A stretch of DNA of 64,000 nucleotides, taken from IMG/VR virus record IMGVR_UViG_3300012920_000022, positions 1 through 64,000 of that record, one strand, 5' to 3'. The stretch comes from a virus. The position numbers and the translations under genes were made by a program. The first letter of the stretch is position 1; each line of letters opens with the position of its first letter. The notes beneath the pieces are model-generated. The model saw only the letters and a program-made list of their open reading frames with translations, was not told the DNA's origin and made no database searches. Below are positions 17,453 through 28,062 of the stretch, piece by piece.

Positions 17453-18292
17453 TTGAAAAAGATAAAAACAGTTTATGATATAAATGAATGTGTAATTTTC
17501 CATAAAATGGAAAATGGAAAATCATTTATAGGTAAAAACAGGGACAGAACCTATTTTTCCAGCATATCAGTAGAAAGATCAAGTTATAATGATATAGAAA
17601 TAGTTGTGATAGTAGATCAAGATACTATGTGGATGGAAGGGATGAATTCCATGGGTATGGGTATTACTAACTCAGCATTGCTTGTTGGATTTGATGAAAA
17701 GGCGAAAAAATTGGCGAAAAAGAACTCTGTAACATCAAAAGATGGCATAATAATAAGAGAAGCATTAAAAATGAATAATATAGAATCCGCAATGACCTGC
17801 TTGAGATATCACATGGGGGGTGTTAGAGGTCACACCATAATTAGTAACAGAGATAGTGTGTATACCATAGAATCAAGCACATATCACGATTCTATAACTA
17901 GCAAAAAAGAATCCTCCATAGGGATTGTTAGAACTAATCACGGTCATGAATTTAGCGGCATTATTGGATATACTTCTGGGGATGATTTTATCAGTTCAAT
18001 TCTTAGAAAAGATCAGATGGGGAGAAATATAAGGGATAGAAATCACGATGATAAATGGTTTGATACCATGACTAAATCAAATTATGACAAAAACTCACCG
18101 TATAACATACGTAGAGATACCGATAAAATGAATACTACCAATCAACTGCTGATGAATTTACATGATCTAGAATTCCATATAAATATGATAAATGATAAAG
18201 GTGAATTTAACGAATTTGTAGACTTGAGTCCAGATATTGATAGGAAGATCAAACTATTTATACATGATAACAACAAAATAAAAGAGATATAA
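17453..18292 (+). CDS. C45-type Ntn-hydrolase (acyltransferase/acylase-like), TTG start
   Basis: The arrangement NECVIFHKMENGKSFIGKNRDR (Cys13, then GKN-R-D about 16 residues later) is that of the penicillin acylase/acyl-CoA:6-APA acyltransferase and choloylglycine hydrolase clan, in which the Cys becomes the N-terminal nucleophile after processing. The downstream TNHGHEF (161-167) is the conserved Asn/His block. The frame opens at a TTG at 17453; the first in-frame ATG lies past Cys13 and would delete the nucleophile, so TTG is the likely start. The family cleaves non-peptide amide bonds such as acyl-homoserine lactones, bile salts or beta-lactams. The phage substrate is unknown. Confidence 0.65.
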   Translation: MKKIKTVYDINECVIFHKMENGKSFIGKNRDRTYFSSISVERSSYNDIEIVVIVDQDTMWMEGMNSMGMGITNSALLVGFDEKAKKLAKKNSVTSKDGIIIREALKMNNIESAMTCLRYHMGGVRGHTIISNRDSVYTIESSTYHDSITSKKESSIGIVRTNHGHEFSGIIGYTSGDDFISSILRKDQMGRNIRDRNHDDKWFDTMTKSNYDKNSPYNIRRDTDKMNTTNQLLMNLHDLEFHINMINDKGEFNEFVDLSPDIDRKIKLFIHDNNKIKEI

Positions 18293-18365
18293 TTTTTAAT
18301 ACAAATCATATATTTTTAGAGGGAATCATACATTTTTAAAATTATTAATCTTTAAAAATTAAAAA

Positions 18366-22092: not shown

Positions 22093-22358
22093 TAGAAGAT
22101 ATATTAAAGAAATTACAATCCAATATTAATGAATTATCATATGAAATCAGCTTAAAGAAAAATACCATAGACAGATCCAGTGTGATGATAAAAACTATGG
22201 TTGAAATTATATATCCGGACTATGATGGAACATTTCAGAAATTATTTGAATCCATGAATAACAATAACATGCCATTAGTAACATATAAAGATAATGATGT
22301 AATGGTAGTTAGTAATCATGGTAAACCAATAACTATAATAGAATGGCTATCAACATAG
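22089..22358 (+). CDS. Hypothetical protein, 89 aa
   Basis: N-terminal coiled-coil-like helix (EDILKKLQSNINELSYEISLKKNTI) followed by a small alpha/beta part ending in the beta strand VMVVSNHGKPITIIEWL. Coupled to its upstream neighbour by ATGA and overlapping the first gene of the LRR-like array by 16 bp. Function unknown. Confidence 0.55.
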   Translation: MIEDILKKLQSNINELSYEISLKKNTIDRSSVMIKTMVEIIYPDYDGTFQKLFESMNNNNMPLVTYKDNDVMVVSNHGKPITIIEWLST

Positions 22359-22882
22359 ATGAATTACTTTATTCAGGAAATAAAATCAGCGTGTCAATTG
22401 CTATAAAGGTAATATTCAGTAGCACAAAATCATATGATAAATATGCATCCTTATTAAAGGAGTATGCAGATTTGTTAAATGTGGATTACGATATAGAAGA
22501 GCATCTGATTTTTATGATGACAAATGATGACATTATAATTAGAGACAGGGTAGATGAATATGAAAAATTGCATATCATAAAAAGTATTAATGCGATTAAA
22601 TTTGATAAATCATCAAATATAACTAGACTACCCCCATGGTTGCTTAAATTTAATCTAAGATCACTTATGGTTGAATCTGATGAAATCACCGAATTATCAC
22701 CAATTGATTTACAAATGTTATCTAATATGAAAGAATTAGATTTTTTTCATGCTGTTGATGTTTACAATGAAAAACTCACTAATTATATGAAATCACTAGG
22801 TTTTGTGTCACATATCCCAGGTGTGTATACAAAAGATAGCTCACCATTCCATAAGGTTGCAAAATTTCAAAAACTATTTTAA
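22343..22882 (+). CDS. LRR-like paralogue 1 of a tandem array, 179 aa
   Basis: Member of a four-gene array sharing one plan: N-terminal DELLYSGNKISVSIAIKVIF helix pair, a middle KLHIIKSINAIKF strand, xLPPWLLKFNLRSLMVESDEITEL (a leucine-rich hairpin) and a closing MKxLGF block. The N-terminal helix pair corresponds to NNIDLAFHIL in the long LRR proteins of this phage, so the array appears to be a shortened LRR family with one or two degenerate repeats. Likely protein-binding; target unknown. Tandem duplication suggests diversification under selection. Confidence 0.6.
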   Translation: MAINIDELLYSGNKISVSIAIKVIFSSTKSYDKYASLLKEYADLLNVDYDIEEHLIFMMTNDDIIIRDRVDEYEKLHIIKSINAIKFDKSSNITRLPPWLLKFNLRSLMVESDEITELSPIDLQMLSNMKELDFFHAVDVYNEKLTNYMKSLGFVSHIPGVYTKDSSPFHKVAKFQKLF

Positions 22883-22887
22883 TAAAG

Positions 22888-23436
22888 ATGAGTAATATAG
22901 ATAGATTATTATACTCAGATGATCACGCAAACATCGCTTTGGCTATAGAAATCATATATGGTAATAGAAATATGTATAACCATTACATATCCATGATAAC
23001 TGATTATGCAAAGATAGTTCATATGAAATTCAATAGTAAAGATGATGCCATAGAACTAGTTGCAAACTCCACATTGCACATGTATGGAGATCTATGTCAA
23101 TATGAAAAATTGCATAGATTTAAAAATATTAAGGAAATCCATATTAAATATTCGGAAATCAAGAAATTACCATCATGGTTACCTAAATTCGATAACATAG
23201 AATCGATAACAATAGGTGATACCAATATAAAAAAATTCACCAGCAAAGATTTAAACATAATATCCAAACTAAAAAATTTAAATCACATATCAGCAAATAA
23301 TATTAGTGATATTAGATTCGGTAAACACATGAAAAATTTGGGATTTACTGGTGGAATGTCTATGTATTCAAAAAAAGATTCTAATTACTATAAATGTGTT
23401 AAGATACATACTAACAGTAGATATGGTAAATATTGA
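22888..23436 (+). CDS. LRR-like paralogue 2 of the tandem array, 182 aa
   Basis: Same plan as its neighbours: NIDRLLYSDDHANIALAIEIIYGN at the start, KLHRFKNIKEIHI, KLPSWLPKFDNIESITIGDTNI as the leucine-rich hairpin, FTSKDLNIISKLKNLNHI, and the closing GKHMKNLGFTGG. It starts five bases after the stop of paralogue 1 and overlaps paralogue 3 by 14 bp. Confidence 0.6.
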   Translation: MSNIDRLLYSDDHANIALAIEIIYGNRNMYNHYISMITDYAKIVHMKFNSKDDAIELVANSTLHMYGDLCQYEKLHRFKNIKEIHIKYSEIKKLPSWLPKFDNIESITIGDTNIKKFTSKDLNIISKLKNLNHISANNISDIRFGKHMKNLGFTGGMSMYSKKDSNYYKCVKIHTNSRYGKY

Positions 23437-23930
23437 AAAATTGTTGTTTTCAAATGACATCCAAAACACAATGGTGGGGATAGATATATTATTAAATAAC
23501 CCAGATGTGTTTGATACTTATACTGAAAAATTAAACGCATGTGGAGAAATATTTGGGATAGTTGATATTAATGAAAACAACTTATTAAAGTTAGTATCGG
23601 AATTTACCACCGTGATAATAGATGATAATATGGGTAGTATTAAAAAATTACATATACTAAAAAACATAAAAACAATTATATTAAACTCTGATAAAATTAA
23701 GAGATTACCAGGATGGTTATCAAATTTTGATAATTTAGAATCTCTGATTTTTAATAAAACTAATATAACCAAATTATCAATTAAAGAATTAAATACGATA
23801 TCTAGATTAAAAAAGTTAAAACGTATATTAGTGGATTTTTAGTGATAGGAAATTCATATCATACATAGAAAATTTGGGATTTGTTGGTAATGGATTATTA
23901 TTTAAAAAATTAGACAACACTCATGGATAG
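23423..23930 (+). pseudogene. LRR-like paralogue 3 of the tandem array, frameshifted near its end
   Basis: The ATG at 23423 (VNIEKLLFSNDIQNTMVGIDIL) matches the start of the other paralogues. The frame stops at 23842 after KRILVDF. Skipping one base in the T5 run just before the stop restores SDRKFISYIENLGFVGNGLLFKKL, which matches the closing block of paralogue 2 (RFGKHMKNLGFTGGM), and would end at 23930, overlapping the next ATG by eight bases as expected in this array. So one T is probably extra: a true frameshift, a sequencing error in a homopolymer, or rarely a phase-variable tract. The truncated product would lack about 30 residues. Confidence 0.65.
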
Positions 23931-24501
23931 TATAGAAAAACTGATGTTTTCCACCGATAGTGGAAACATACTATTGGCAATAGAAATAATGTTTGGTAAT
24001 CCAAGACAATATAGTCATTGGATTACCAAACTATCCAATATGTTGCCGATATTAAATATAGAAGAATCGGGCAAAGATGGTATATGTAAATTATTAAATA
24101 AAAACCACATAGTAATGTCAGATGATCTATCAAAATACGAAAAATTACACATATTAAAAAACATAAAATCAATAGATATTAGATCAAACTATGCCAAAAA
24201 ATTACCATCATGGCTGATCAAGTTTGATAACATAGAGACAATTGATATGAATTCATTTGGGGGGATGAACAAATTTACTGGTAAAGATCTAGAAATAATA
24301 GGTAATCTAAAAAATCTAACATGGTTACATACCATGGTACGCAGTGATAGATTACACAAATTTATGACAAATCTAAGATTCGCAAATGTTATGGGGATTT
24401 ATTATAAGCCAGTTATTAGCCAGTTATTAGCCAGTTATCAAAAAACATCAAAAAATATAACAATAATGGGTAGGGTTAGACAACCAATAACTAAAATTTA
24501 A
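23923..24501 (+). CDS. LRR-like paralogue 4 of the tandem array, 192 aa
   Basis: Begins DSIEKLMFSTDSGNILLAIEIMFGN, then KLHILKNIKSIDI, KLPSWLIKFDNIETIDM, FTGKDLEIIGNLKNLTWL and HKFMTNLRFANVMG, parallel to paralogues 1-3. The C-terminal extension (about 30 residues) is unique and includes a triple 11-bp DNA repeat (AGCCAGTTATT) encoding VISQLLASY. It converges with and overlaps the minus-strand gene ending at 24491. Confidence 0.6.
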   Translation: MDSIEKLMFSTDSGNILLAIEIMFGNPRQYSHWITKLSNMLPILNIEESGKDGICKLLNKNHIVMSDDLSKYEKLHILKNIKSIDIRSNYAKKLPSWLIKFDNIETIDMNSFGGMNKFTGKDLEIIGNLKNLTWLHTMVRSDRLHKFMTNLRFANVMGIYYKPVISQLLASYQKTSKNITIMGRVRQPITKI

Positions 24502-26102: not shown

Positions 26103-26506
26103 TGAGCAAATCTATAATAATATATGAAATAATTTCATTCATATTTTTAAAGAAAAATTGGGATGGTCATGATGCGAGTAAGGTAATGATTATAGTAATC
26201 ATTAATACCACATGGTTTATAATGAAATTAAATAAGCATTATGTGAAATTAATATATGATTTTTATCCAAACCCAGACGGTACTATATCAATAGAGTGGG
26301 GACATAAAATAGGCAGTACTATATCACTAGAGGTGGGTAAATATTATAGTTCATATTATACTGAAATTGGTGGTACAATTATTAACAAATATGATAATAT
26401 AAAGTTAAATAAAATCAATAAACCTATCTTATTAAAATCAATAGATTTATTATATGAAAATCAATCCAATAAAATGGTCAACCAAAAAATTAAAAGCGTT
26501 GATTGA
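26102..26506 (+). CDS. Hypothetical protein of a 'NWDGxxA ... PDGTIxxEW' family, 134 aa
   Basis: The string KKNWDGHDASK and the later FYPNPDGTISIEWGHK are the two hallmarks of a small protein family scattered in bacteria and phages (WDGxxA near the N-terminus, P-x-x-DGxIxxEW in the middle), whose function is not known to me. The C-terminal beta part (TISLEVGKYYSSYYTEIGG) fits that family. It starts at the stop of the ART-like gene and overlaps the terminase fragment gene by 53 bp. Confidence 0.5.
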   Translation: MSKSIIIYEIISFIFLKKNWDGHDASKVMIIVIINTTWFIMKLNKHYVKLIYDFYPNPDGTISIEWGHKIGSTISLEVGKYYSSYYTEIGGTIINKYDNIKLNKINKPILLKSIDLLYENQSNKMVNQKIKSVD

Positions 26507-26963
26507 AAAAATAGAATCTACTGGCACCATGCCAAGAAATAACCCATTCCATGACGGTGACCTTAGCTATAAATCAGAAGGGGTTAAATGGGTATATACA
26601 GAAGAAGAAGCAGAGGAATTGATAAGAATAAAAACTGATATATTTTATTTTGCCGAAAATGTGGCTAAAGTCATGACCGATAAAAAGGGGATTACCACAT
26701 TAAAAGAAGTTGGGGGATTAAGAGATTATCAAAAAAGCACACTACTTGATTTAGTCAGATACAGATTTAATATATGGCTTGCCTCGCGTCAGATAGGCAA
26801 GTGTGTATGTCCATATACCAAAATAACTATAAAAGATAACAAAGGTAATTTATCTATTATACCAATATTTGAATTATATTATACCAATGTTGCTAACATT
26901 GGTATAATAGATAAATTAAAACTAAATTTATATAGGATATCTTATAGACTTAGAAACCTATAG
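26454..26963 (+). CDS. 17: Terminase large subunit, N-terminal fragment fused to an N-terminal split intein
   Basis: Residues 1-116 are a T4 gp17-type N-terminus: NPFHDGDLSYKSEGVKWVYTEEE, DIFYFAENVAKVMTDKKGI, and LRDYQKSTLLDLVRYRFNIWLASRQIGK, where SRQIGK is the Walker A start (T4: SRQLGKTT). Instead of T/S comes Cys117 and CVCPYTKITIKDNKG, a canonical intein block A, then 38 further residues typical of phage inteins (IFELYYTNV, DKLKLNLYRISYRL) before the stop. Intein block B (TxxH) and the rest of TerL are absent, and the next gene is antisense. The protein must therefore be completed by trans-splicing with a partner encoded outside this window, as known for the AceL-TerL split intein. Confidence 0.85.
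   Translation: MKINPIKWSTKKLKALIEKIESTGTMPRNNPFHDGDLSYKSEGVKWVYTEEEAEELIRIKTDIFYFAENVAKVMTDKKGITTLKEVGGLRDYQKSTLLDLVRYRFNIWLASRQIGKCVCPYTKITIKDNKGNLSIIPIFELYYTNVANIGIIDKLKLNLYRISYRLRNL
26877..26909. repeat. Perfect 15-bp inverted repeat in the split-intein region
   Basis: TATTATACCAATGTT, loop GCT, AACATTGGTATAATA. It is inside the intein-N coding part, encoding YYTNVANIGII. It could fold in the mRNA or mark a former breakpoint. Confidence 0.9.
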
Positions 26964-28062
26964 ATTTGGATTGTTGATCATTATCAATATTATTGAATAT
27001 GGTTGCAAGTGTAACATCACAAGTAAATTCATTATCTATTTTGTTATTCATGGCTATTTTATTGGCATTGTCACTAGATATCCTATCAAATTTATGAGAT
27101 ATAGCTAACCTTCCAGGTCTCCTCAATGCTTTATCTATATTTGCTATGTCTGTATTAAAGGTTAGAATAATTTTAATATTAAGACCATCTGATAAAAGAC
27201 CATCCCCTATATTAAGTAAGCTATCAATTGATGATTTATCATGATCAAATTTCCTATCAGTAACCAAATTTTCGGATTCTTCTATTATAATAACTCTATT
27301 TTTCATATCTCTAAGCACTGGCATCAAATTAGCATTGTGCATATCCGGAATCATACTAGCTGGTAGATAAACAAAATCAATATCTTTACACTCGTTTATA
27401 ATATACCTAATATAATTTGTTTTACCAGTACCGGGTTCACCATGTAGTATAAAAATAGATCCATCACCAGACCTTAATTTAGCGATTATATTATTATGAA
27501 TCTTTTTAAACCCATTACCATAATACAAATCAAGATCTGGTATATTAGGTAATAATACCTGTTGATCCGAAAAATAGTGACCATTATTACTGAAATTCAA
27601 ATATTGTATTCTATTATATTTATTGATTCTTTCGCATTCTTTTATAAAAGATGATATGCTTTCTATTATATTCTCCAGTGGTGCTTGGTCAGCATAAATT
27701 ATGGGTATAGTATTTGGAGATACAATTACATCTTCTAGATTCATGGTGTCACAGTCTGATACAATGGACATAATCACATCATATTCACTACAATTATTGG
27801 TTTTAATTAATAATAACCAGCTAATATAATAATTATTTCTATGGTTGTCGTAATTAGTATAAGATTTCACCAATCTGACATCATTTAAGTCATTATTAGA
27901 AATACTTATTATGAATTCAGATAAATTAAATCTAGAATTAATATTAGTATATTCAAATCTATTAGATAAATCCTTAGTAACATATGATATGAACTCATTA
28001 GCCAAGAGATCATGGGATGACATGAACTCACCTATATTTATACCATCTGATTTTTCGGTCAT
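26950..28062 (-). CDS. AAA+ ATPase, 370 aa
   Basis: Walker A GEPGTGKT (208-215), Walker B RVIIIEE (256-262, Glu-Glu instead of Asp-Glu), sensor 1 ILTFNTDI, and RRPGRLA with the arginine-finger-type Arg. This is the Cdc48/FtsH-like AAA pattern without protease or zinc site. The N-terminal 190 residues are a separate, unassigned domain, as in the AAA proteins common in Bacteroidetes phages. It lacks a GAFTGA loop, so it is not a sigma-54 activator. Converges on the terminase fragment with 14 bp overlap and diverges from the gp6-like gene across 47 bp. Role (protein or DNA remodelling) unknown. Confidence 0.8.
   Translation of the reverse strand: MTEKSDGINIGEFMSSHDLLANEFISYVTKDLSNRFEYTNINSRFNLSEFIISISNNDLNDVRLVKSYTNYDNHRNNYYISWLLLIKTNNCSEYDVIMSIVSDCDTMNLEDVIVSPNTIPIIYADQAPLENIIESISSFIKECERINKYNRIQYLNFSNNGHYFSDQQVLLPNIPDLDLYYGNGFKKIHNNIIAKLRSGDGSIFILHGEPGTGKTNYIRYIINECKDIDFVYLPASMIPDMHNANLMPVLRDMKNRVIIIEESENLVTDRKFDHDKSSIDSLLNIGDGLLSDGLNIKIILTFNTDIANIDKALRRPGRLAISHKFDRISSDNANKIAMNNKIDNEFTCDVTLATIFNNIDNDQQSKSIGF

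What the first reader, a model, noticed from the sequence alone, without database searches (positions are those of the whole stretch)
26454..26963. Atypically split intein inserted in the Walker A motif of the terminase large subunit
The TerL N-terminus runs to SRQIGK, then Cys117 opens an intein block A (CVCPYTKITIKDNKG) and the gene stops after 53 intein residues, before block B. The antisense strand codes for an AAA+ protein, so the frame cannot continue here. No gene in the window encodes the rest of TerL or a C-terminal intein. The packaging motor must be built by protein trans-splicing from two unlinked genes. The AceL-TerL split intein, known from metagenomic DNA, is the nearest precedent; this gives it a phage context and a different break point.
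Basis: partly seen in the sequence, partly recalled or inferred. Interest (0 to 1): 0.92.

Follow-up and report, generated by a model that had tools for sequence, protein, structure and literature searches.

The report
Half a phage packaging motor gene
This phage gene encodes only the front part of the DNA-packaging motor, ending in half of a self-splicing protein element; in related giant phages the other half is encoded 9-12 kb away, so the motor is probably joined together after translation.

Summary
ORF 26454-26963 is the N-terminal part of a T4-type terminase large subunit (TerL) up to SRQIGK, followed by a 53-residue intein N-fragment from Cys117. The intein part is significant alone: E 8e-6 with a profile excluding this ORF; 23.5 bits against at most 12.3 in 2000 shuffles. 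The C-half (IntC-TerL) is absent from the whole 135,755-base record, but both record ends cut open frames in repeats, so it is a fragment. Relatives support the mechanism: in a 735-kb phage record (LR756501) and two viral contigs the same two genes lie 9-12.4 kb apart with opposite-strand genes between. Elsewhere the halves flank a Vsr-like homing endonuclease, sit side by side, or are fused. The break is not truly new: it lies in the block A/B gap of AceL/GOS-TerL, with an added tail helix; a fused relative (AF2 pLDDT 86) places it in the loop of a helical hairpin. Verdict: a new member of the atypically split TerL inteins, in a dispersed variant. Side finding: in eight contigs the endonuclease is overprinted in the +1 frame of a fused intein, a plausible route to splitting.

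The parts
26454..26801 (+). TerL N-extein, residues 1-116, ending SRQIGK (first part of Walker A)
   Evidence: PHROG 5989 E 1.2e-12; T4 gp17 alignment
26802..26960 (+). Intein N-fragment (IntN), residues 117-169, from catalytic Cys117
   Evidence: IntN-only profile without the window, E 7.9e-6 and shuffle test; alignment with six relatives
26802..26846 (+). Intein block A, CVCPYTKITIKDNKG
   Evidence: alignment with fused inteins of Magnus and Kuja TerL at the same site
26904..26957 (+). Predicted tail helix of IntN (residues 151-168, IIDKLKLNLYRISYRLRN); counterpart of helix 1 of the helical hairpin in the fused relative L032
   Evidence: AF2, low confidence; L032 model; alignment
26961..26963 (+). 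TAG stop that ends the N-terminal gene before intein block B
26950..28062 (-). Convergent AAA+ ATPase gene; not part of TerL, shows that the frame does not continue here

Best explanation
The ORF is the N-terminal gene of a terminase large subunit split at Walker A by a naturally split intein of the AceL/GOS-TerL type. Its 53-residue IntN carries block A, the following conserved element and a tail helix. A second gene, not in this fragment, should encode IntC (block B to block G, probably with a matching head helix) followed by Thr or Ser, the rest of the ATPase and the nuclease. The two products meet, probably through the tail and head helices, complete the HINT fold, excise the intein and ligate GK to T/S. 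This restores Walker A and makes an active motor. Shown here: the N-extein, the IntN homology, the break between blocks A and B, and dispersed halves in relatives. Inferred: the partner in this genome, the helix docking, and splicing itself.
For: IntN significant on its own. Relatives with the matching second half: LR756500 with an endonuclease between, LR756501 12.4 kb apart with opposite-strand genes between, contigs G003 and G001 about 9.0 and 11.2 kb apart, L013 adjacent, L007 with two split inteins in one TerL. IntC profile matches engineered Cat (6dsl), gp41-1 and VidaL inteins at E 1e-11 to 1e-9. Fused relative folds as an intein with a helical hairpin at the break. Record ends cut open frames in repeats, so the missing partner is expected; relatives have 168-735 kb.
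Against: The partner has not been seen in this genome. IntN fragments are short and the AF2 model of the window protein is poor (mean pLDDT 56). The IntN profile finds no intein in the PDB by sequence. No splicing data exist.
Confidence: 0.88

Rival explanations
1. The gene is a decayed remnant: TerL was broken by deletion or rearrangement and packaging uses another, intact terminase elsewhere in the genome.
For: No second half in the record. Related giant phages carry a second TerL-like gene.
Against: The N-gene is intact from ATG to a stop at a position homologous to the IntN ends of relatives, and its tail is conserved. The second TerL-like genes seen in relatives have a degenerate Walker A (SRQMGI) and lack the nuclease part. 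No other TerL is found in this record.
Confidence: 0.05
2. Assembly artefact: the contig joins the IntN gene to an unrelated stretch, and the true neighbour is an endonuclease plus IntC-TerL as in LR756500.
For: Reads could not be inspected; the record is a metagenomic contig. In LR756500, L007 and L031 the IntC gene follows within about 1.1 kb.
Against: The IntN gene ends with its own stop, the next gene is complete and convergent, and three other records show the same kind of separation.
Confidence: 0.04
3. TerL works as two non-covalent subunits, as a split DNA polymerase does in the same genome, and the intein remnant is not used.
For: The same record encodes DNA polymerase in two distant genes on opposite strands, with no intein block visible at the end of the first.
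Against: The break lies inside Walker A and is followed by an intein block A with catalytic Cys. A P-loop divided between two chains with intein pieces attached is not expected to work (inference).
Confidence: 0.02

Closest known systems
AceL-TerL and GOS-TerL atypically split inteins (consensus-engineered Cat, PDB 6dsl)
   Same: TerL host protein, short IntN cut between blocks A and B, IntC profile matches CatC at E 1e-10.
   Different: IntN of 53 residues with a tail helix instead of 25 or 37; partner gene not close by; dispersed halves in relatives.
'Fractured genes' with split inteins and a Vsr-like homing endonuclease (Dassa et al. 2009, cited in PMC6892783; paper itself not held)
   Same: L007, L017, L031 and L045 have IntN, endonuclease, IntC in this order; endonucleases hit Vsr/DUF559/MTES_1575-type models.
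   Different: The window has no endonuclease and no IntC next to IntN; in eight contigs the endonuclease is instead overprinted in a fused intein.
Fused TerL inteins of Ackermannviridae phages (Klebsiella phage Magnus, Vibrio phage Kuja)
   Same: Same insertion site GK|C...HN|T in Walker A.
   Different: One continuous 159- or 173-residue mini-intein, not split.
Cyanobacterial DnaE split intein (from general knowledge, not tested here)
   Same: Two halves encoded by distant genes and joined by trans-splicing.
   Different: Cellular polymerase subunit, canonical break point, not phage.

Membership tests
Atypically split TerL inteins (AceL/GOS type) | Host protein TerL, insertion in Walker A after GK | tested here: met
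Atypically split TerL inteins (AceL/GOS type) | IntN with Cys1 and block A, ending before block B | tested here: met
Atypically split TerL inteins (AceL/GOS type) | Complementary IntC-TerL gene in the same genome | tested here: inconclusive
   absent from the 135,755-base fragment; present in relatives
Atypically split TerL inteins (AceL/GOS type) | Trans-splicing activity | not testable with these tools
   needs co-expression of both halves
Fractured-gene arrangement (IntN - homing endonuclease - IntC) | Free-standing endonuclease gene between the two halves | tested here: not met
   the next gene is a convergent AAA+ ATPase
T4-type TerL (gp17) | N-terminal region up to Walker A | tested here: met
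T4-type TerL (gp17) | Rest of the ATPase and C-terminal nuclease | tested here: not met
   not in this ORF or record; expected on the missing partner gene

The most novel reading that the evidence does not exclude
At one TerL site phages show a series: a fused intein; a fused intein with a homing endonuclease overprinted in the +1 frame; a split intein around the endonuclease; adjacent halves without it; and dispersed halves in separate transcription units. Splitting would arise when the intein frame over the overprinted endonuclease gains stops, and dispersal would fix an obligatory trans-spliced packaging motor that can no longer home.
Probability: 0.45. Interest if true: 0.78.

Novelty: new variant of a known kind. 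Interest (0 to 1): 0.63.

Why it matters
The naturally split TerL inteins are used as protein-labelling tools, but their biology has little genome context. Here they sit in giant-phage genomes with the halves in separate transcription units, so an essential motor would depend on trans-splicing at its catalytic P-loop. Fused, overprinted, split and dispersed forms at one site make the origin of split inteins testable, and they offer new IntN/IntC pairs with possible helix-based docking for protein engineering.

Tried and rejected
Searches for the partner with single TerLs, IntC-TerL proteins, a combined profile at maximum sensitivity, PF03237 and PHROG 5989 gave nothing in the record. A weak tblastn match at 18274-18324 resembling block B lies in a frame full of stops and was dropped. 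HN[CST] motifs in the record are not in TerL-like proteins. TAG readthrough was rejected. A portal search in viral contigs found no close relative of this phage. Alignment A2 had no stretch conserved enough for a collection scan. A scan of bacterial and archaeal genomes with the IntC-TerL alignment gave one contig. The IntN profile finds no intein in the PDB, so the IntN call rests on relatives and context. MAFFT misplaced the IntN pieces when aligned together with IntC, so they were aligned apart. No terminator or promoter signal stands out near the ORF.

Full report
What is there. ORF 26454-26963 (+) is 169 aa. Its first 116 residues are the start of a T4-type terminase large subunit: PHROG 5989 at E 1.2e-12 and T4 gp17 chains at E 0.001-0.002, aligned through SRQ-GK. 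Where Walker A should continue with S/T the frame runs into Cys117 and 52 more residues. To test that stretch alone I built a profile from seven related split IntNs and three fused inteins, without the window. The window ORF is the best frame in the record (E 7.9e-6, next 0.14), and the real 53 residues score 23.5 bits against a maximum of 12.3 in 2000 shuffles. The stop is genuine.

Where is the rest. The window lies in a virus record of 135,755 bases, which I read completely. Neither Terminase_6N, PHROG 5989, nor a profile of IntC-TerL and intact TerL C-parts at maximum sensitivity finds a partner; the same profile scores controls at E 1e-81 to 1e-149. The left end of the record cuts a leucine-rich-repeat frame and the right end cuts a frame of DEPTEPVK repeats, with no terminal repeats. 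Related phages have 168-735 kb. So the record is a fragment and absence of the partner proves little. If the assembly is right, the partner lies more than 26 kb upstream or more than 108 kb downstream of the N-gene.

Relatives. LR756500.1 (462 kb) has TerL-IntN, a 366-aa endonuclease, then IntC-TerL. LR756501.1 (735 kb, deposited as an uncultured phage chromosome; closure not verified here) has TerL-IntN and, 12.4 kb further on the same strand, IntC-TerL; between them five ORFs at 13.3-16.8 kb of locus L027, and one at 8.0 kb, run on the opposite strand. Two viral contigs repeat this: G003 with about 9.0 kb and G001 with about 11.2 kb, the N-gene of G001 being cut by the contig end. L007 has TerL in three pieces, with split inteins at Walker A and Walker B and an endonuclease in each gap. 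L013 has adjacent halves with no endonuclease. L031 and L045 have an endonuclease between the halves. Intact TerLs occur in L009, L010, L020 and L021.

Where the intein is cut. Magnus and Kuja phages have a fused intein at exactly the same site. Contig L032 has a fused 197-aa intein in which the tail helix of IntN and the head helix of IntC form one hairpin. AF2 predicts it at pLDDT 86 with helices 19-49 and 55-72 before the beta-rich HINT part; Foldseek matches VidaL, gp41-1 and Cat inteins. The long split forms are therefore cut in the loop of this hairpin, in the block A/B gap used by AceL (25 aa) and GOS-TerL (37 aa; PMC11766414). L045, with a 34-aa IntN and no tail, is the short type. The window tail is predicted helical, with low confidence, and is moderately amphipathic (2.6% of shuffles as high).

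Junction residues vary: IntC ends SHN, NLN, SLN or SSQ. The +1 residue is Thr or Ser, the Walker A residue after Lys, so each half should be catalytically dead until spliced (inference from P-loop chemistry).

Mechanism. Shown: the N-extein, IntN, the break point, and relatives with complementary halves in distant genes. Inferred: docking by the helices, splicing, and the partner in this genome.

Overprinted endonuclease. In L035, L036, L037, L040, L041, L046 and L047, and in 5'-truncated L039 judging by its open frame, the fused intein is 421-422 aa because a 278-279-aa endonuclease is encoded in the +1 frame (checked in detail in L035, L037, L040, L046). Its start lies in the intein's IGEFY/IGDFY codons, which read ATAGGAGA...ATG, a ribosome-binding-site-like sequence and start. 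The intein frame has 0 stops over the endonuclease; re-drawing the endonuclease codons synonymously gives 15-19 on average, minimum 6 in 2000. Between the two diverged groups the endonuclease frame is 59% identical and the intein frame 32%, so the endonuclease is constrained and the intein frame is mainly kept open. The endonuclease has Vsr/DUF559/MTES_1575-type hits like those between the split halves. A search of the held library for such an overprint found nothing, which is weak evidence of novelty.

Judgement. The finding is real and its central inference is likely, but it belongs to a known intein family. What is new is the giant-phage context with dispersed halves and the helical-hairpin break, plus the overprinted forms in relatives.

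Noticed in passing
L037:4764-5603; L046:5174-6010; also L035, L036, L039, L040, L041, L047: A Vsr-like homing endonuclease is encoded in the +1 frame inside a fused 421-422-aa TerL intein: no stop in the intein frame against 15-19 expected. Possible dual coding and a route to split inteins.
   Followed up: partly
record G000: 96490-97944 (+) and 131541-132719 (-): DNA polymerase B is encoded in two distant genes on opposite strands, with no intein block visible at the end of the first.
   Followed up: partly
L007:66-5777: One TerL in three pieces: two split inteins (Walker A and Walker B sites), each with an endonuclease gene of a different family in the gap.
   Followed up: partly
L064 (LR756501.1 near 700.2-701.0 kb) and L017:11624-12436: Giant phages with split TerL also carry a TerL-like paralogue with a degenerate Walker A (SRQMGI) and no nuclease part.
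   Followed up: no
window 26877-26909: Perfect 15-bp inverted repeat with a 3-base loop inside the IntN codons (fold z-score -4.7 for 26870-26990); some 36 perfect hairpins of at least 12 bp occur in the record, one with 33-bp arms at 95369-95439.
   Followed up: partly
window 22343-24501 and record positions such as 63334, 66947, 71643, 73617, 74711, 75553, 89293: A large family of related proteins starting like LLxSGDDxNIxLAFxL, several with leucine-rich repeats, is expanded across this genome.
   Followed up: no
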